From NCBI GenBank assembly GCA_037200385.1, contig JBBCGL010000001.1:1178001-1242000 (forward strand): a stretch of DNA of 64,000 nucleotides, read 5' to 3'. The notes beneath the pieces are model-generated. The model was not told the DNA's origin. It saw nothing but the letters and a program-made list of their open reading frames with translations, and ran no database searches. Below are positions 1 through 12,876 of this stretch, in pieces; the stretch's first letter is position 1, and each line of letters starts with the position of its first letter. The translations under genes and the position numbers were made by a program. Source of the DNA: Rhizomicrobium sp. (GTDB lineage Bacteria; Pseudomonadota; Alphaproteobacteria; Micropepsales; Micropepsaceae).

Positions 1-1820
<1,820 letters not shown>

Positions 1821-2095
1821 GGCCATCGCGCGCGAATGCGCGGTATCGCGTTGGCCGCCGCGGAAGGGAACCGACCGTATCGCCTGCAGTCTTATTATTA
1901 ACGCGCCGGCTTAAGTGTTTGCAGAGGAAACTATGGCGTTGCCGCAGCGGACCGCCAATCCTCGACAGGGAACGGCTTTCTCGCTTTGATGAATGCCTTT
2001 GCGCAGCAACGTTACGTGTTTGAAATACATGCTCGACCTGTTAGACAATTGTTGCGCCGCACCACCGCGTATGTTTTCAAGCTGGACTCGGACTT
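1821..2095. other. Noncoding spacer, locally AT-rich, upstream of the ATP-grasp gene
   Basis: No convincing gene is visible here. Base composition drops in GC compared with the flanking genes. A weak promoter-like pair for the downstream gene is TTGAAA at 2020-2025 and TAGACA at 2042-2047 with 16 bases between them. I see no clear terminator for acs. A TTAA-N9-TTAA pair at 1898-1914 has the wrong spacing for a CtrA box. Confidence 0.4.
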
Positions 2096-3178
2096 ATGTC
2101 GTTTCGTGTTATTGTAACCGATGCAAATTACCGGCCGAGCATCGCCCTCGCGCAGTACGCCAAAAGAGCCATCCCGGACCTGCATCTGATCGGGCACTCG
2201 ACGGGACCATCCTATCCGGCGCGATGGTATTCCTGCTACGACGAGATCGTGTCGGACACGCCGCTCGCGCCTTTTCTGCAGAGCGCTCAATACGACATGG
2301 TGATCCCGGTCGGTGCCGACTCGGTGTTGGCGACATCGGCGGTCGCACCCGACAAGGCGGTGCTGCCGCCGCGCGACAAGATCGAAATCTGTTTCGACAA
2401 AGTCCGGACATTGGCGCTCGCGCGCGAGCAGAACGTTCCTTTTCCGGCAACCCGGCATTTCGAACGCGGCCAGCCACTCGATTTTTCGGGGATCGCGTTT
2501 CCCTGCGTCGTCAAGGCGGCGCGTGAAAACGCGCGCGGCAAGGTCGTCCGCTATTGCGACGACGAAGCCTCCCTGAAGGCGGAGGTCGCGAAGCAGTTGG
2601 AGACGATAGGCGGCAATGGCGGCCTGCTCGTGCAAGAGCGCATCGACGGCAGCGGCGCCGGGCTTTTCGCGCTGTGCGACCGCGGCAAACCGCTGCGTGT
2701 GTTCATGCATCAGCGCCTGCGCGAATATCCGCCGACCGGCGGCATCAGCGTGGCCGCCCGTGCCTTCTATTCGGAGCGCCTGAAGGAACTGGGCCTGCGG
2801 CTGCTCGCGGCGCTCGAATGGCATGGAGTGGCGATGGTCGAGTTCCGCCGCAGCCATGCGACGGGCGAATTCGTGCTGATGGAGATCAACGGCAAGTTCT
2901 GGGGCTCCCTCGAGCTTTCGCTCGCCGCCGGCGTGAACTTCGCCGCCGATCTCATCCGGTTCTACCGCGGGGAGACGCTCGAAGCCGATACGGGATTCGA
3001 CCGCGACTGCGAATTCTACTGGCCGCTGGACGGCGATATCCTCACACTGTGGAAGACGGGCGCGCTCGGGAAGATGCGCGACTACTGGCGTCCCAATGCG
3101 CATACCAATCTCGGCGGAAGCTTGATGGCGGACGCGCGCAAATCGCTCGCGCTGGTCTACAAGGCGATCACGACGTGA
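2096..3178 (+). CDS. ATP-grasp domain ligase of unknown substrate
   Basis: A 360-residue single-chain ATP-grasp protein, the fold that joins a carboxylate to an amine or other nucleophile through an acyl-phosphate. What shows this is the CPSase-like lysine segment around residues 140-160 (FPCVVKAA), a later LVQERIDGSGAG segment, and the metal-binding stretch LMEINGKFWGSLELS near residue 262 that matches the family's E-x-N signature. No biotin carboxylase or D-Ala-D-Ala ligase partner domains are present, so the substrate cannot be read off. Its last four bases overlap the GTG start of the PHP gene, which in turn overlaps a ceramidase-like hydrolase, so the three are probably made and used together. 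The start at 2096 gives a sensible beta-strand N-terminus (SFRVIVTDA) but has no strong ribosome site. Confidence 0.85.
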   Translation: MSFRVIVTDANYRPSIALAQYAKRAIPDLHLIGHSTGPSYPARWYSCYDEIVSDTPLAPFLQSAQYDMVIPVGADSVLATSAVAPDKAVLPPRDKIEICFDKVRTLALAREQNVPFPATRHFERGQPLDFSGIAFPCVVKAARENARGKVVRYCDDEASLKAEVAKQLETIGGNGGLLVQERIDGSGAGLFALCDRGKPLRVFMHQRLREYPPTGGISVAARAFYSERLKELGLRLLAALEWHGVAMVEFRRSHATGEFVLMEINGKFWGSLELSLAAGVNFAADLIRFYRGETLEADTGFDRDCEFYWPLDGDILTLWKTGALGKMRDYWRPNAHTNLGGSLMADARKSLALVYKAITT

Positions 3179-3891
3179 ACGACGGCTACCTTCGCGGGAT
3201 CATCCACTGCCATTCGCGGCATTCCCACGACTCGCTGGTCAACATATCCGCCTATCTGAATGCGGCACGCCGGCACGCGCTGGACTTCATCGTTTTGACG
3301 GACCACGACACGATCGAGGGCTCGCTGGAACTGGCCGACGCCGCCCGCCGCATCCTGCCCCGTCTCCAGGTACCCTTGGCGGCCGAATACAATACCAGTC
3401 ACGGCGACGTCATCGCCGTGTTCCTCAAGGAAGACATCGCCAGCCGCCAGATCGACGCGTTCTTCGCCGAAGCCCGCGCGAAAGACGCCCTGCTTCTATT
3501 GCCGCATCCCTATGTCGGGCACCAGGAAACCGAGGCGCTGGCGGCGCAGTGCGATCTCGTCGAGGTCGTCAATTGCCGCGCCTCGGCGCCGGCCAATCAA
3601 CGCGCCACGGCGCTCGCCGCCGCGTTGGGCAAGCGCAGCTATCCCGCGTCCGATGCGCATTTCGCGCACAGCCTGGGCAATGCCATCGTCGAAGTGCAGG
3701 ATTTGGGGTCGTTGCGCGCTTCGCTGTCCCATGGCCAAATGCGCTGGCGACAGCCGCGGCTGACCGGTCAGTTCGAATATGGTGCATCGCAGCTCATCAG
3801 CGCGGTCAAACTGAAAGACATGAACAGGCTGAAGATATTGGCAAAGCGGACCGTTCGCCGATTGTATGCCGGCCTAAATGGCAATGCGTGA
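3175..3891 (+). CDS. PHP-domain metal-dependent phosphoesterase
   Basis: A 238-residue PHP-family protein, probably a metal-dependent phosphoesterase or related hydrolase in the cytoplasm. The metal ligands are visible in order: HCHSRHSHDS near residue 11, LTDHDT near residue 43, an acidic AAEYNT near residue 69, LLPHPY near residue 106 and SDAHFAHS near residue 159. The GTG start at 3175 overlaps the previous stop (GTGA); the frame is open further upstream but only as antisense-like filler, and the PHP fold begins right after this GTG. The 3' end overlaps the next gene by 14 bases. The PHP family covers histidinol phosphatase, polymerase-associated and nucleotide phosphatases; this stand-alone short form does not match any one of these closely enough to assign a substrate. 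Confidence 0.85.
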   Translation: MNDGYLRGIIHCHSRHSHDSLVNISAYLNAARRHALDFIVLTDHDTIEGSLELADAARRILPRLQVPLAAEYNTSHGDVIAVFLKEDIASRQIDAFFAEARAKDALLLLPHPYVGHQETEALAAQCDLVEVVNCRASAPANQRATALAAALGKRSYPASDAHFAHSLGNAIVEVQDLGSLRASLSHGQMRWRQPRLTGQFEYGASQLISAVKLKDMNRLKILAKRTVRRLYAGLNGNA

Positions 3892-5134
3892 TGCCGGGAT
3901 GACTGCGCCGGGCGTCACCATCGCCGTCGGCAGCGTCGACATCACGCCTCAGAAACCCGTTGGCCTCGGTGGATATTCCGGGCGCACGGCGCTCTTCCAA
4001 AGCATCGCCGATCCGCTGGAGGCCAACGTCCTGGTCCTCGCCGGCCCCGCGACGCGGGTGGTGTTCGTCACCATCGACTCGCTTTTCCCGGGCCGGACTT
4101 TGCGTGAGCACCTGCTGACGACGCTCGGCCTGAAGGACGAAGAGCTCGTCCTCGTCGCATCGCACACCCATTTCGCGCCCCTGCTCGCCCCCGAATTGCC
4201 CGGTCTTGGTCAACCGGCCCCCGATCAGGCCGTGTTCGTGGCCGAGCGGATCGCCGCCCTCGTCCGCTCCTTGGAAGGCAAGGGGCGCGCCGCGCAATGC
4301 TTCCATTCCCAAGGCAAGGCCGATCATGCGATAAGCCGGCGCCTCAAATGGCTGCGTCTCACGCGCAAGGGTCTTTCCTACGGCGCCGGTCTCGGGCCGA
4401 ACCCCGGCGGCGAAAAGGACGAACGGATCGCGGCCTTGCGGTTCTGCGACGACGCCGGCCAAACCGTTGCGTTGCTGTGGAACTACGCCTGCCATCCCAC
4501 CGACTTTCCGGAACGGCTGCAGGTTTCAGCCGATTATCCCGGCGTGGTCCGCGCCCGGCTGCGCGAAGCATTCGGCGATGTGCCGGTATTGTTCCTGCAG
4601 GGCTTCGCAGGGGATGTGCGGCCTCCCTTCAGCGGGACGACCCCCAGCCTGGCCGGACTGCTTCACAGGGTCCTGCTCGGACCGCAATTCCGCAGGCCCG
4701 CGATGCCCGAATGGCGTGCCTGGGCCGATGGACTGGCGGCGCGCGTGGTCGCGGCCTTCCGGTCGCCGGCCGCGCCGCTCGTGCTGAGCGAACCGGTGGC
4801 AACCCGTCTGACGGTGGCGGAGGCGCTGCTCGGAGACGGCGGCGGCGGCGACAAGCCGCTCGTGTGGCACAAGGTGGAATGCGGCGGTTTCCGCCTGCTC
4901 GCCGTCAACGCGGAGCCCGTCACCGCCTATCGCCGTCTGCTCGAACCCCATTTCACCGACAAGCTGCTGCTGACCGCAGGCTATATCGACCAGACGCACT
5001 GCTACCTGCCTGTCGACAGCATGCTGGACGAAGGCGGCTATGAGGTGGAAGGCTTTCGCCCGCTGTTCGGCTATCGCACGCGCTTTCGCAAGGGCATGCA
5101 GGCTGCCGCGATCGCGCCGCTGCTCCGCAGCTGA
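3878..5134 (+). CDS. Neutral/alkaline ceramidase-like hydrolase
   Basis: A 418-residue protein resembling the N-terminal catalytic domain of neutral/alkaline non-lysosomal ceramidases. Signs are the early GSVDITP segment, LVASHTHFAPLL near residue 95 (the family's ASHTHSGP zinc site), NYACHPTDFP near residue 204 and FAGDVRPP near residue 245. The C-terminal immunoglobulin-like domain and the signal peptide of secreted ceramidases are both absent, so it is likely cytoplasmic and its amide or ester substrate may not be a ceramide. ATG at 3878 overlaps the PHP gene; internal ATGs at 3884 and 3899 are alternative starts. Being last in the coupled trio suggests it acts on the same metabolite as the ATP-grasp and PHP enzymes. 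Confidence 0.82.
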   Translation: MAMRDAGMTAPGVTIAVGSVDITPQKPVGLGGYSGRTALFQSIADPLEANVLVLAGPATRVVFVTIDSLFPGRTLREHLLTTLGLKDEELVLVASHTHFAPLLAPELPGLGQPAPDQAVFVAERIAALVRSLEGKGRAAQCFHSQGKADHAISRRLKWLRLTRKGLSYGAGLGPNPGGEKDERIAALRFCDDAGQTVALLWNYACHPTDFPERLQVSADYPGVVRARLREAFGDVPVLFLQGFAGDVRPPFSGTTPSLAGLLHRVLLGPQFRRPAMPEWRAWADGLAARVVAAFRSPAAPLVLSEPVATRLTVAEALLGDGGGGDKPLVWHKVECGGFRLLAVNAEPVTAYRRLLEPHFTDKLLLTAGYIDQTHCYLPVDSMLDEGGYEVEGFRPLFGYRTRFRKGMQAAAIAPLLRS

Positions 5135-5142
5135 TCGATCGT

Positions 5143-5445
5143 TCAGCGCGCTGCCGCGTTTTCCGCGTAGTCGTTCATCGCCGCGGCCATGTCGATATCG
5201 TTCTGCGTGACGCCTCCGGCATCGTGCGTCGAAAGCAAGACGTCCAGCTTGTTGTAGACGTTCGACCATTCGGGATGGTGGTCCATCTTCTCGGCCAGCA
5301 GCGCGACGCGCGTCATGAAGGCGAAAGCCGCGTTGAAATCCTTGAACAGGAAGCGGCGCACGATGGCGTCGCGGTCGCCGGCCGGCGTCCAGCCGCCGAG
5401 CGTCTTCAGCGCGGCGTCGCGCGCGGCAGCGTCGAGTTTTTTCAT
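5143..5445 (-). CDS. phhB: 4a-hydroxytetrahydrobiopterin dehydratase (pterin carbinolamine dehydratase)
   Basis: A 100-residue protein of the PCD/DCoH family, which dehydrates 4a-hydroxytetrahydropterin made by aromatic amino-acid hydroxylases. The active-site signature is intact: [11 protein letters not shown] around residue 55, then [17 protein letters not shown] around residue 71, with the paired histidines and the THxxGG element. Length is typical. It converges on the ceramidase-like gene with only eight bases between the stop codons, and its start lies 38 bases from a divergent metallopeptidase gene. No phenylalanine hydroxylase gene is in the window, so its partner cannot be shown; some alphaproteobacterial homologues act in molybdopterin-related chemistry instead. 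Confidence 0.92.
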
Positions 5446-9457: not shown

Positions 9458-11983
9458 ATGATCCGGCTCGCCCTCCGCTTCGCGCGGCGCGAGATGCGGC
9501 AGCGACTGAGCGGCTTTCGTATCTTCTTCGCCTGTCTCGTGCTGGGCGTCGCCGCGATCGCCGGCGTGGAATCGCTTTCCGCGGCGTTCCTCACCGGACT
9601 GGCGGAACAGGGCCGCACCTTGCTGGGTGGCGATGTCGTCGTGCATCTGGTGCATCGCGAGGCAAGCGCCGAGGAACGCGCCTGGATGGCGGAGCGCGGG
9701 CGCGTCTCCGAGACCGTCTCGATGCGCGGCATGGCCTATGCGCTCAAACGCGGTGTCGAAGACGAGCGCCAGCTCGTCGAGCTGAAAGCTGTCGACCGCG
9801 CTTATCCGTTCTTCGGCACGGTATCGCTGTCGCCGGCGCTGAATCTCAAAAAAGCGCTGGCCTGCGACGCGGAGGCTTGCGGCGCGGTGGCGGAACAGAC
9901 GCTGGTCGACCGCCTGCATCTTGCGCCCGGCGGCCTGATGAAGATCGGAACGCAGGTTTTCCGTCTCAGCGCGGTGTTGAACGGCGAACCCGACCGAATC
10001 TCGGGCGGCTTCAGCCTTGGCCCGCATGTCCTGATCGGCATGGCGGCGCTGCCCCGCACCGGTCTCGTCACGCTCGGCAGCCTGATCGACTACAACTACC
10101 ATCTCGTGTTGCCGCCCGACGCGGACCCGAAGGCGTTCAAGGCACGAGCGACGGCCGCATTTCCCGATGCCGGCTGGGACATCCGAGACCGCAGCGACGC
10201 CGCGCCCGGCATCCGCCGCTTCGTCGAGCAGGTCACCATGTTCCTCACCCTGGTCGGCCTCACCGCGTTGGCGGTGGGCGGCGTGGGCGCCGGCCAGGCG
10301 GTCAGCGCCTTCCTCGACCGCAAGCGGGGCGAGATCGCGATCTTCAAGTCGTTGGGCGCCGACGGCACGCTGATCTTCCTGATCTTCTTCCTGCAGGTGA
10401 TGGCGATCGCGGCCTTGGCGGTCGTCACCGGATTGATCCTGGGCGCCTTGCTGCCCTTCGGCGTCCAATATGCTTTCGCCCAAGACCTTCCGGCCCCGGC
10501 GCATTTCGCGCTCTATCCGGGGCCGTTGCTGTTCGCCGCCGCCTTCGGGTTGCTGTCCGCGATCGCCTGCGCCGTGCCGCCTTTATCGCGCGCGCGGCTG
10601 ATCCCGCCCGCCAGCCTGTTCCGCGATCTCGTCGCGCCGGCGGATGCGCGCGGCGCCCTGCCCTATTTGTTGGGTGCGGGCGTCGCGGGCCTGGGAATCG
10701 TGGCGCTCGCCCTGCTGCTGGCTCCGGCGCCGGACTTCGCCGCGGAGTTCATGGGCGGGGTGCTGGCCGGACTGATCCTGTTGCGCCTGATCGCGGAAGG
10801 CTTTCGCTTCCTGCTCAAGCGCCTGCCGCGACCGCGCATGCCGACGCTGCGGCTGGCGCTGGCCAATCTCACGCGGCCCGGCGCGGCAACGACGGGCGTG
10901 GTGACCGCCCTGGGGCTGGGCCTCACCCTGCTGGCCACCGTATCGCTGCTCGACCACACCATCTCGGCCCAGGTGAAGGATCGTTTGCCGGGCACGGCGC
11001 CCAGTTTCTTCTTCGTCGATATCCAGCCGGACGAGGCGGTGCGCTTCGACGCGGCGATCCTCAAGTTCAAATCGGCGGAAGACTTCAAGCGCACGCCGAT
11101 GATCCGGGGACGGATCGTCTCGCTGAAGGGCGTGCCGGCGAAGGACGCGAAGATCGCGCCGGACGCGAAATGGGCGGTCAGCGGCGATCGCGGCATCACC
11201 TATGCCGCAGAGCCGCCCGACGGCACCGTCATCACGGACGGACGGTGGTGGGCCAGGGACTATGCCGGTCCGCCGCTGGTCTCCTTCGATGCCGCGCTGG
11301 CGGAGGGGATGGGGCTGCGGATCGGCGACAAGCTCGTGATGAATGTGCTGGGGCGGGAGATCCCCGCCACCATCGCAAACCTGCGCAAGGTCGATTTCAC
11401 GACCGGCGGGCAGAACTTCATCATCGTGATGTCGCCCGAGCCCATTTCGCATGCGCCGCATTCCTTCCTCGCGACGGTGCGCGTCGACCCGCGCGACGAA
11501 GAAGCGCTGTACCGCGCGATCACGGATGCGTTCCCCAACATCTCGACCATCCGGGTGAAGGACGCCATCGCACAGGTCGATGGACTGCTCCAGGAATTGA
11601 GCGACGGCGTGCGGGCGGCGAGCCTTCTCACCATCCTCTCCGGTCTGCTGGTGCTGGCCGGTGCGATCGCCGCAGGCGGGCGCGGGCGGCTCTACGACGC
11701 AACGGTCCTGAAGGTGCTGGGTGCGACGCGGGCCCGAATCGCCCTGGTCTATGTGATCGAGTACGGCGTCACAGGATTGCTGACCGGCCTGCTGGCGCTG
11801 GGCGCCGGGACCTTGGCGGCGGCCGTCATCTGCGAGCAGGTCCTGGGAGTTCCGCTGATCTTCGACGCGGCCGCGGCCTTGCTGACGGTCGCAGGCGGTG
11901 GCGCCGCAACCTTGTTGTTCGGGCTCGCAGGCGCCTGGACGGCCCTGGCGGCCCGGCCGGCGCAACAGCTGCGTGCGCCATAG
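9458..11983 (+). CDS. ybbP: FtsX-family ABC permease, YbbP type
   Basis: An 841-residue inner-membrane permease with the YbbP layout: an N-terminal membrane helix (residues about 20-40), a large periplasmic domain, a first FtsX membrane bundle near residues 260-375, further helices to about residue 495, a second periplasmic domain, and a C-terminal FtsX bundle from about residue 715. The cytoplasmic EIAIFKSLGAD segment after the first bundle helix is the usual coupling region to the ATPase. The length fits the double-FtsX class that functions with a single ATPase. It is cotranscribed with ybbA, and no accessory membrane-fusion protein is nearby. Confidence 0.92.
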   Translation: MIRLALRFARREMRQRLSGFRIFFACLVLGVAAIAGVESLSAAFLTGLAEQGRTLLGGDVVVHLVHREASAEERAWMAERGRVSETVSMRGMAYALKRGVEDERQLVELKAVDRAYPFFGTVSLSPALNLKKALACDAEACGAVAEQTLVDRLHLAPGGLMKIGTQVFRLSAVLNGEPDRISGGFSLGPHVLIGMAALPRTGLVTLGSLIDYNYHLVLPPDADPKAFKARATAAFPDAGWDIRDRSDAAPGIRRFVEQVTMFLTLVGLTALAVGGVGAGQAVSAFLDRKRGEIAIFKSLGADGTLIFLIFFLQVMAIAALAVVTGLILGALLPFGVQYAFAQDLPAPAHFALYPGPLLFAAAFGLLSAIACAVPPLSRARLIPPASLFRDLVAPADARGALPYLLGAGVAGLGIVALALLLAPAPDFAAEFMGGVLAGLILLRLIAEGFRFLLKRLPRPRMPTLRLALANLTRPGAATTGVVTALGLGLTLLATVSLLDHTISAQVKDRLPGTAPSFFFVDIQPDEAVRFDAAILKFKSAEDFKRTPMIRGRIVSLKGVPAKDAKIAPDAKWAVSGDRGITYAAEPPDGTVITDGRWWARDYAGPPLVSFDAALAEGMGLRIGDKLVMNVLGREIPATIANLRKVDFTTGGQNFIIVMSPEPISHAPHSFLATVRVDPRDEEALYRAITDAFPNISTIRVKDAIAQVDGLLQELSDGVRAASLLTILSGLLVLAGAIAAGGRGRLYDATVLKVLGATRARIALVYVIEYGVTGLLTGLLALGAGTLAAAVICEQVLGVPLIFDAAAALLTVAGGGAATLLFGLAGAWTALAARPAQQLRAP

Positions 11984-12032
11984 CGTCCCCTGCGGGCGTG
12001 ATGCAAGGATTAGGGCGATTTAAGCTGCCGTC

Positions 12033-12063
12033 TTGATACCGCGTCTCCGAAACACGATATAAT
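12033..12063 (+). promoter_or_regulatory. Promoter candidate of the Bax-inhibitor-1 gene
   Basis: TTGATA at 12033-12038 and a perfect TATAAT at 12058-12063, separated by 19 bases, which is longer than the ideal 17. The -10 match is striking in GC-rich DNA. It places the transcript start about 35 bases before the gene. A short CCGGC/GCCGG stem lies between the promoter and the start codon. Alphaproteobacterial ybhL leader RNAs occur before such genes, but I cannot confirm one by eye. Confidence 0.5.
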
Positions 12064-12102
12064 GCGGGAGCCGGCGACCTTGCCGGGAAGAAAGGGTTTC
12101 AC

Positions 12103-12876
12103 ATGGCTGACTTCGACAACCGCGTCCTGCCCGGCCAGGCGGCTGCCGCCGGCGTGTATGACGAGGGCCTGCGCGGCTACATGCTGCGCGTCTACAACTA
12201 CATGCTGATCGCGATGCTGGTCACCGGCGTCAGCGCCTACGGCATCTATTCCGCTTCGGTGACGACCGATCCGGCCGCCGCTGCCGCGCATCTCAGCGGT
12301 GGACTTATGCTCACCAAGCTGGGCGTGGCGATCTTCACCTCCCCGCTCCGCTGGGTGATCATGCTGGCGCCCGTCGGGGCCGCGCTGTTCCTGCAGGCCC
12401 GCGTGCGGGTGATGTCGGTGGTCGGCGCCCAGGCGGTGTTCTGGGTCTTCTCCGCCCTGATGGGCTTTTCCATCGCGGCGATCTGCATGGTCTATGCGCA
12501 GACCGACATCACGCAGGCCTTCTTCCTCACGGCCGGCGCGTTCGGCGGGCTCAGCCTCTACGGCTACAGCACCAAGCGCGACTTGTCGGGCATGGCGTCG
12601 TTCCTGATCATGGGCATGTGGGGCCTGTTCTTCGCCCTGATCGCGAACATCTTCTTCGAGTCGAAAGGCGCGCAGCTGCTGCTGTCGATCATCGGCGTCG
12701 GCATCTTCGCCGGCCTGACCGCCTATGACTCGCAGGCCATCAAGGAGCGCTATTCCGCCAACGACGACGGCACGGTCACGGGCCGCAAGGCGATCCTGGG
12801 CGCGGTGCACCTCTACATCGACTTCATCAACATGTTCCAGTTCCTGCTGTACATCATGGGCGGCAGCCGCCGCTGA
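12103..12876 (+). CDS. Bax inhibitor-1 (YccA/YbhL) family membrane protein
   Basis: A 257-residue inner-membrane protein with seven hydrophobic segments beginning near residue 28. It carries the family's C-terminal features, including YDSQAIKERY near residue 208 and the final helix with DFINMFQFLLY. Bacterial members are thought to be calcium-leak or proteostasis-related channels, and some bind FtsH (YccA). It is a single-gene unit with its own promoter-like sequence and a strong terminator immediately downstream. Confidence 0.93.
   Translation: MADFDNRVLPGQAAAAGVYDEGLRGYMLRVYNYMLIAMLVTGVSAYGIYSASVTTDPAAAAAHLSGGLMLTKLGVAIFTSPLRWVIMLAPVGAALFLQARVRVMSVVGAQAVFWVFSALMGFSIAAICMVYAQTDITQAFFLTAGAFGGLSLYGYSTKRDLSGMASFLIMGMWGLFFALIANIFFESKGAQLLLSIIGVGIFAGLTAYDSQAIKERYSANDDGTVTGRKAILGAVHLYIDFINMFQFLLYIMGGSRR

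What the first reader, a model, noticed from the sequence alone, without database searches (positions are those of the whole stretch)
2096..5134. Coupled ATP-grasp / PHP / ceramidase-like trio of unknown pathway
Three enzymes with no assigned substrate are joined by overlapping starts (GTGA at 3175-3178, then a 14-base overlap at 3878-3891). One fold makes an amide or ester bond (ATP-grasp), one removes a phosphate (PHP), and one hydrolyses an amide or ester (ceramidase-like, but lacking both a signal peptide and the C-terminal domain of true ceramidases). Together they could build and trim a peptide-like or lipid-linked metabolite. The block is preceded by an unusually AT-rich spacer and is bounded by ordinary housekeeping genes. 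This is my leading candidate for an undescribed system.
Basis: partly seen in the sequence, partly recalled or inferred. Interest (0 to 1): 0.7.

Follow-up and report, generated by a model that had tools for sequence, protein, structure and literature searches.

The report
Acquired trio for editing surface sugars
Three overlapping genes, sitting between two ordinary genes, look like a small acquired kit that cuts and remakes amide bonds on cell-surface sugars, using a relative of the fat-cutting enzyme ceramidase in a setting where it is not usually expected.

Summary
The three genes and their coupling are real. They encode an ATP-grasp ligase, a PHP metallophosphoesterase and a protein with the neutral-ceramidase catalytic fold and no visible signal peptide; recalled active-site positions are largely kept. 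The trio is not conserved: in the samples searched it was seen whole only here. In 27 of 29 genus relatives read, the flanking genes (acs, PCBD) are convergent neighbours, 508 bp or less apart in 14, so the trio fills a variable site and was probably gained as a block. Relatives of its members mostly live apart, but often near surface-glycan genes: 9 of 14 full-length ceramidase-like and 14 of 21 ATP-grasp relatives. Partial groupings recur: ATP-grasp with PHP (Natribaculum), ATP-grasp and ceramidase-like in one locus (Azospirillum), ATP-grasp fused to an LMW phosphatase (two genomes). The best parallel is the Campylobacter capsule, where an ATP-grasp enzyme attaches a phosphorylated amine and a phosphatase strips the phosphate. 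Most likely function: amide editing of a surface-glycan intermediate (deacylate, religate, dephosphorylate). Activity, substrates and order are inferred. New variant of a known kind; the newest part is the ceramidase fold as a possible sugar amidase.

The parts
1821..2095 (.). spacer, 56% GC; one weak sigma-70-like match at 2020-2049 (+)
   Evidence: 1 found, 0.6 expected: no better than chance
2096..3178 (+). ATPG: ATP-grasp ligase, 360 aa; K140, E263, N265 invariant and E249 nearly so in 13 rows
3175..3891 (+). PHP: metallophosphoesterase, 238 aa, GTG start; HxH 11/13, DH 43/44, E71, H111, D160/H162
3878..5134 (+). CER: neutral-ceramidase-fold hydrolase, 418 aa, probably cytosolic; H96/H98, H206, E346, Y376; GDVR where ceramidases have GDVS (recalled)
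42..1820 (+). acs (ORF as seen in the window; in relatives the gene is about 645 aa, so its start probably lies upstream): left flank of the variable site
5143..5445 (-). PCBD (pterin-4a-carbinolamine dehydratase): right flank of the variable site

Best explanation
The trio is a compact, acquired cassette that edits amide bonds on a precursor of a cell-surface glycan. CER, a zinc hydrolase of neutral-ceramidase fold without signal peptide, works in the cytosol and removes an N-acyl group from an amino-sugar unit. ATPG uses ATP to form a new amide at the sugar, with a phosphorylated amine or a phosphorylated acid as partner. PHP removes the phosphate from the ligated product, as a phosphatase does in the Campylobacter capsule pathway. 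The glycan itself would be made by genes elsewhere in the chromosome. Shown by calls: the genes, their families or fold, kept site positions, a variable insertion site, the glycan setting of many relatives, and repeated ATP-grasp/phosphatase pairing. Inferred: activity, metal, substrates, order of steps, and that the three act on one molecule.
Against: The three were seen together only here. No glycan gene was recognised beside the trio. 16 of 21 ATPG relatives have no recognised phosphatase fused or directly adjacent. 5 of 14 CER relatives have no confirmed glycan gene: L027 (weak glycosyltransferase match), L028 and L032 (short contigs, neighbours not scanned), L053 (asparagine synthase beside it) and L139 (phage structural region). 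L027 has changes at two putative metal positions (H206D, E346A). ORFs for Pfam were chosen by eye and no background rate of glycan genes was measured; several ATPG rows are near kin (Haloprofundus L051 and L081). The phosphatase parts of the two fusions resemble Wzb, which acts on a protein kinase. The flippase family found in this genome also rang in 14 of 14 control genomes, so it is no proof of a matching glycan pathway.
Confidence: 0.5

Rival explanations
1. A small peptide-like metabolite: ATPG joins amino acids, CER and PHP trim it.
For: ATP-grasp enzymes include amino-acid ligases; the ATPG profile also matches L-amino acid ligase 3vot (E 6.6e-10) and D-Ala-D-Ala ligases. The trio has no recognised glycan gene beside it. 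One ATPG relative lies beside an amino-acid racemase and a D-cysteine desulfhydrase.
Against: No transporter, carrier or NRPS-like ORF in the block; many relatives of CER and ATPG are near glycan genes.
Confidence: 0.2
2. Lipid amide turnover: CER hydrolyses a bacterial ceramide or N-acyl amino lipid inside the cell.
For: The clear solved relatives are true neutral ceramidases. A distant CER-like gene in Caulobacter lies near acyl-CoA genes.
Against: No visible signal peptide, no C-terminal domain, Arg where ceramidases carry the GDVS serine (recalled); glycan setting of 9 of 14 closer relatives.
Confidence: 0.1
3. PHP is a regulatory tyrosine phosphatase of glycan export, like CpsB, and the other two are tailoring enzymes.
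For: LMW (Wzb) and PHP (CpsB) phosphatases are functional equivalents in capsule assembly (PMC2777267, abstract seen), and ATPG relatives carry Wzb-like or PHP partners.
Against: PHP matches general PHP models, CehA/McbA and nucleotide-phosphatase models (the latter below cut-off); no CpsB model or structure was listed. No Wzc-like kinase ORF was recognised in the block.
Confidence: 0.1
4. Three unrelated acquired genes that happen to share a variable site.
For: The acs-PCBD gap holds other ORFs in several relatives; the trio was not seen elsewhere.
Against: Overlapping or abutting ends on one strand, no other recognised gene in the gap, and two of the three pairings recur in one locus each in other taxa.
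Confidence: 0.1

Closest known systems
Campylobacter jejuni HS:2/HS:19 capsule amidation, Cj1438C ATP-grasp amidoligase and Cj1435 HAD phosphatase (PMC11800379 and PMC13276843, passages read)
   Same: ATP-grasp ligase and phosphatase serving a surface glycan; ligation of a phosphorylated amine followed by removal of the phosphate
   Different: Cj1438C is TupA-like and fused to a glycosyltransferase; the phosphatase is of HAD type; no ceramidase-like amidase was mentioned in the passages read; the window block has no glycosyltransferase
Neutral ceramidase, PF04734 (2zws, 4wgk)
   Same: catalytic-domain fold; HxH and the later His align with 4wgk
   Different: no visible signal peptide, no C-terminal domain, Arg at the GDVS position, below the Pfam cut-off, glycan rather than lipid setting of most closer relatives
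Polysaccharide deacetylase + PHP + ATP-grasp group of Natribaculum luteum (L047)
   Same: overlapping PHP and ATP-grasp genes beside an annotated deacetylase in a glycan locus
   Different: no ceramidase-like gene; gene order is deacetylase-PHP-ATPG; 28% (PHP) and 29% (ATPG) identity
Wzb / CpsB phosphatases of capsule loci (PMC2777267, abstract seen)
   Same: LMW and PHP phosphatases serve as equivalents in glycan systems
   Different: they act on a tyrosine kinase; no kinase recognised here and no CpsB match

Membership tests
Neutral ceramidase (PF04734) | catalytic-domain fold | tested here: met
Neutral ceramidase (PF04734) | Pfam gathering score | tested here: not met
   21.4 of 32.1 bits
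Neutral ceramidase (PF04734) | zinc-site residues (two His, Glu, Tyr; roles recalled) | tested here: inconclusive
   HTH and CHP align with 4wgk in the profile match; Glu and Tyr only in a 0.9-bit stretch; each kept in 12 or 13 of 13 rows
Neutral ceramidase (PF04734) | GDVS serine (recalled as catalytic; not aligned to a solved ceramidase by any search) | tested here: not met
   R248 in the window; R in 11 of 13 rows
Neutral ceramidase (PF04734) | C-terminal domain | tested here: not met
   the 418-aa model spans chain residues 3-482 of 2zws (630 residues)
Neutral ceramidase (PF04734) | signal peptide | tested here: inconclusive
   no hydrophobic N-terminus by eye; no predictor run
ATP-grasp ligase | family profile and nucleotide/metal residues | tested here: met
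   profile to 2pn1 E 2e-26 and to carbamoyl-phosphate synthase; K140, E263, N265 invariant, E249 nearly. Roles of residues recalled
ATPgrasp_Ter (PF15632) | gathering score | tested here: not met
   24.6 of 29.1 bits; relatives L049, L054, L055, L072, L073 pass it
TupA-like amidoligase (as Cj1438C) | sequence match to a TupA ATP-grasp model (that Pfam holds one is recalled) | tested here: inconclusive
   no such model among the two Pfam matches at E 0.01
PHP superfamily | PF02811 score and metal-binding motifs (recalled) | tested here: met
   28.4 of 26.4 bits; HxH, DH, E, H, DxH invariant in 3 of 3 rows
CehA/McbA metallohydrolase (NF038032) | curated score | tested here: not met
   45 of 80 bits; the L047 relative passes, 86.4 of 80
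CpsB-type tyrosine phosphatase | match to a CpsB model or structure | tested here: inconclusive
   none listed
Campylobacter-type glycan amidation pathway | ligase and phosphatase genes linked to each other | tested here: met
   GTGA overlap
Campylobacter-type glycan amidation pathway | lies within a glycan locus | tested here: not met
   no glycosyltransferase or other glycan gene recognised beside the trio
Campylobacter-type glycan amidation pathway | ligation of a phosphorylated amine, then dephosphorylation | not testable with these tools
   needs enzyme assays

The most novel reading that the evidence does not exclude
The neutral-ceramidase fold has a sparse, undescribed cytosolic branch (GDxR motif, no C-terminal domain) that is a family of sugar N-deacylases for surface glycans, found so far in Gemmatimonadota, Bacteroidota, alphaproteobacteria and even a phage structural region; with an ATP-grasp ligase and an exchangeable phosphatase it forms a deacylate-religate-dephosphorylate relay that rewrites amide groups on glycans.
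Probability: 0.3. Interest if true: 0.68.

Novelty: new variant of a known kind. Interest (0 to 1): 0.48.

Why it matters
Ceramidases are known as lipid enzymes (recalled); a soluble branch acting on sugars would explain some 'hypothetical' genes in polysaccharide loci and offer a new amidase for glycan chemistry. The recurring ATP-grasp/phosphatase pairing suggests a wider rule, shown in the papers I saw for one capsule system: ligate a phosphorylated amine, then strip the phosphate. Both claims can be tested with purified proteins.

Tried and rejected
Conservation of the trio as a unit: not found; PHP was searched in the class draw, in 20 handles and in plasmids, not in the whole order. The TAL-effector matches of the CER profile look like a repeat artefact around the ASHTH motif and were not followed. 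The C-terminal CER profile found no ceramidase among PDB sequences. The PHP model without alignment was poor (pLDDT 42.8) and was not used. The promoter and terminator scans are no better than chance; repeats and tRNAs gave no insertion mechanism. L054 7675-8688 looked like a deacetylase by eye, but neither Pfam nor NCBIfam matched it; the deacetylase match of L057 8170-9153 is below cut-off (18.9 of 23.1 bits). No match of CER, or of the L139 relative, in 50,697 phage records at E 1e-3. PHP in viral contigs: 2 of 36 candidates, 50-residue matches in what looks by eye like a phage replication region, dropped. The list of GD-x-[RSN] motifs came from a pattern that asked for R, S or N, so it is no survey; R and N were seen, S was not. 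The 790-residue ORF sent for L056 is in another frame than the ATPG match there; it showed a GNAT domain only. Rows dropped before counts: CER relatives under 30% identity or partial (L002-L021, L035-L042, L062/L065, L076-L079 and the distant plasmid hits other than Azospirillum). Of 67 plasmid records with an ATPG match, 12 were read through their hits. Of 44 other genus genomes with a PCBD match, 29 were read at the flank; of the 13 with a gap over 508 bp, 10 were read.

Full report
OBSERVATION. ATPG 2096-3178, PHP 3175-3891 from GTG, CER 3878-5134, all on +. The 14-base overlap depends on which ATG starts CER; ATG 3899, without overlap, matches the starts of some relatives better. The spacer is 56% GC, in the lowest 1.3% of 275-base windows. 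The trio has somewhat lower third-position GC (0.78-0.80) than acs (0.88).

ORIGIN. In 96 genomes of the order, CER matches at E 1e-8 occur in 14 besides this one, 27-31% identical and none reaching past residue 252, and ATPG in 2 others, with no other genome in both lists. In 387 genomes drawn from the class, own included, CER occurs in 2 others (E 1e-18), ATPG in 4 others (E 1e-15), PHP in none (E 1e-12), with no overlap; the tool scored only part of its candidates in some genomes. With the CER profile, 2 of 396 others in a phylum-wide draw matched (one of them partial), and 6 of 106 in the phylum of G828, G828 included (two strong, four weaker and partial). Of 14 genomes or records holding a CER relative, ATPG was found in 2 (G828, on other contigs; Azospirillum, in the same locus) and PHP in none. 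Of 50 genus genomes searched, 45 have PCBD, own included; 29 others were read at the flank. In 27 of 29 acs and PCBD are convergent, with estimated gaps from -3 to 9,827 bp: 508 bp or less in 14, and 664 bp or more in 13. Ten of those 13 were read; a simple ORF picker shows other ORFs in the gap of nine, the tenth (L129) being unclear. In the window the gap is about 3.3 kb and the trio is all that was recognised in it. So the site is variable and the trio most likely came in as a block; loss in all the relatives is less likely but not excluded, and no insertion mechanism is visible.

SETTING OF RELATIVES. CER, 14 relatives full length at 30% identity or more (L027-L034, L049, L052, L053, L063, L080, L139): glycan genes by Pfam or record annotation in the DNA read in 9 (L029, L030, L031, L033, L034, L049, L052, L063, L080); not confirmed in L027 (weak glycosyltransferase), L028 and L032 (short contigs, neighbours not scanned), L053 (asparagine synthase) and L139. 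A flippase-family gene is the neighbour in L049, L052 and L030, and by eye in L063, where Pfam found nothing. Distant CER-like genes in haloarchaea lie by aminotransferases, Gfo/Idh or a sugar-phosphate isomerase, in Nitratireductor directly after a NagA-like gene and a SIS sugar isomerase, and in Caulobacter near a glycosyl hydrolase and acyl-CoA genes. A CER gene 36% identical lies on the opposite strand inside a phage structural region. ATPG, 21 distant relatives read: glycan genes in 14 (L047, L049-L051, L055, L056, L058, L072, L073, L081, L084-L087), not confirmed in L023, L054, L057, L082, L083, L088, L089. A phosphatase is fused or adjacent in 5 of 21: L047 PHP, L049 calcineurin-like, L054 and L055 LMWPc fused, L057 LMWPc adjacent and convergent; in L083 and L085 an annotated phosphatase lies one to three genes off. 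PHP has matches in 2 of 72,556 plasmid records, both haloarchaeal; one overlaps ATPG, the other lies some kilobases from glycosyltransferases. The ORFs scanned were chosen by eye from a simple ORF picker and no background rate was measured, so these counts show association, not its significance.

FUNCTION. In Campylobacter jejuni the ATP-grasp domain Cj1438C amidates glucuronic acid of the capsule with serinol-P or ethanolamine-P, and Cj1435 then removes the phosphate (PMC11800379, passages; PMC13276843, passages). This would explain why an ATP-grasp enzyme travels with a phosphatase. An annotated polysaccharide deacetylase is the third partner in Natribaculum, where CER stands in the window. 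An ATP-grasp ligase in the locus of another proposed glycan-amide enzyme was noted by others (PMC4000134, passages), and fusion of an ATP-grasp domain to a glycan esterase in animals by others again (PMC2824669, passages). I therefore read the trio as an amide-editing cassette for a surface glycan. The genome has possible glycan genes elsewhere: two matches to a flippase family (the family also rang in 14 of 14 control genomes) and by-eye RmlB-, DegT- and GalU-like ORFs around them.

LIMITS. No activity, substrate or order is shown. The Wzb-likeness of the fused phosphatases and the equivalence of Wzb and CpsB in capsule assembly (PMC2777267, abstract) keep a regulatory role for PHP open.

Noticed in passing
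window 1820-5143; L096-L136: The interval between acs and PCBD varies across the genus: 508 bp or less in 14 of 27 genomes; in nine of ten larger gaps read, other ORFs lie there (TetR-like, beta-lactamase-fold-like, TonB-receptor-like by eye).
   Followed up: partly
L054 5951-7678; L055 9123-11102: ATP-grasp domains fused to a C-terminal LMW phosphatase domain resembling Wzb, in two genomes of different families of the class.
   Followed up: partly
L139 2619-3893: A full-length relative of CER (36% identity) on the opposite strand inside a phage structural region (tail- and head-annotated PHROGs) of an IMG/VR contig: a candidate phage-carried surface-glycan modifier.
   Followed up: partly
L094 3380-7248: A distant ceramidase-like gene directly follows NagA-like and SIS sugar-isomerase genes in a Nitratireductor plasmid, beside a sugar ABC transporter.
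   Followed up: partly
L031 6455-7963; L080 8046-9575: A protein of about 505 aa with no Pfam match at E 1e-4 lies beside CER in Bacteroidetes and Gemmatimonadota loci; the two are 23% identical over their length (E 3e-28).
   Followed up: partly
L027 1852-3129: A close CER relative with changes at two putative zinc positions (H206D, E346A) while most of the rest is kept.
   Followed up: no
L030 1-1119; L034 6853-7938; L056 about 11966-12380: GNAT-type acyltransferase domains next to CER or ATPG relatives, in keeping with removal and re-addition of acyl groups.
   Followed up: no
L059 3968-5176 (about 3-4 kb upstream of the window start): An ORF that looks by eye like a membrane acyltransferase lies upstream of acs in this genome; it was not scanned and is not adjacent to the trio.
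   Followed up: no
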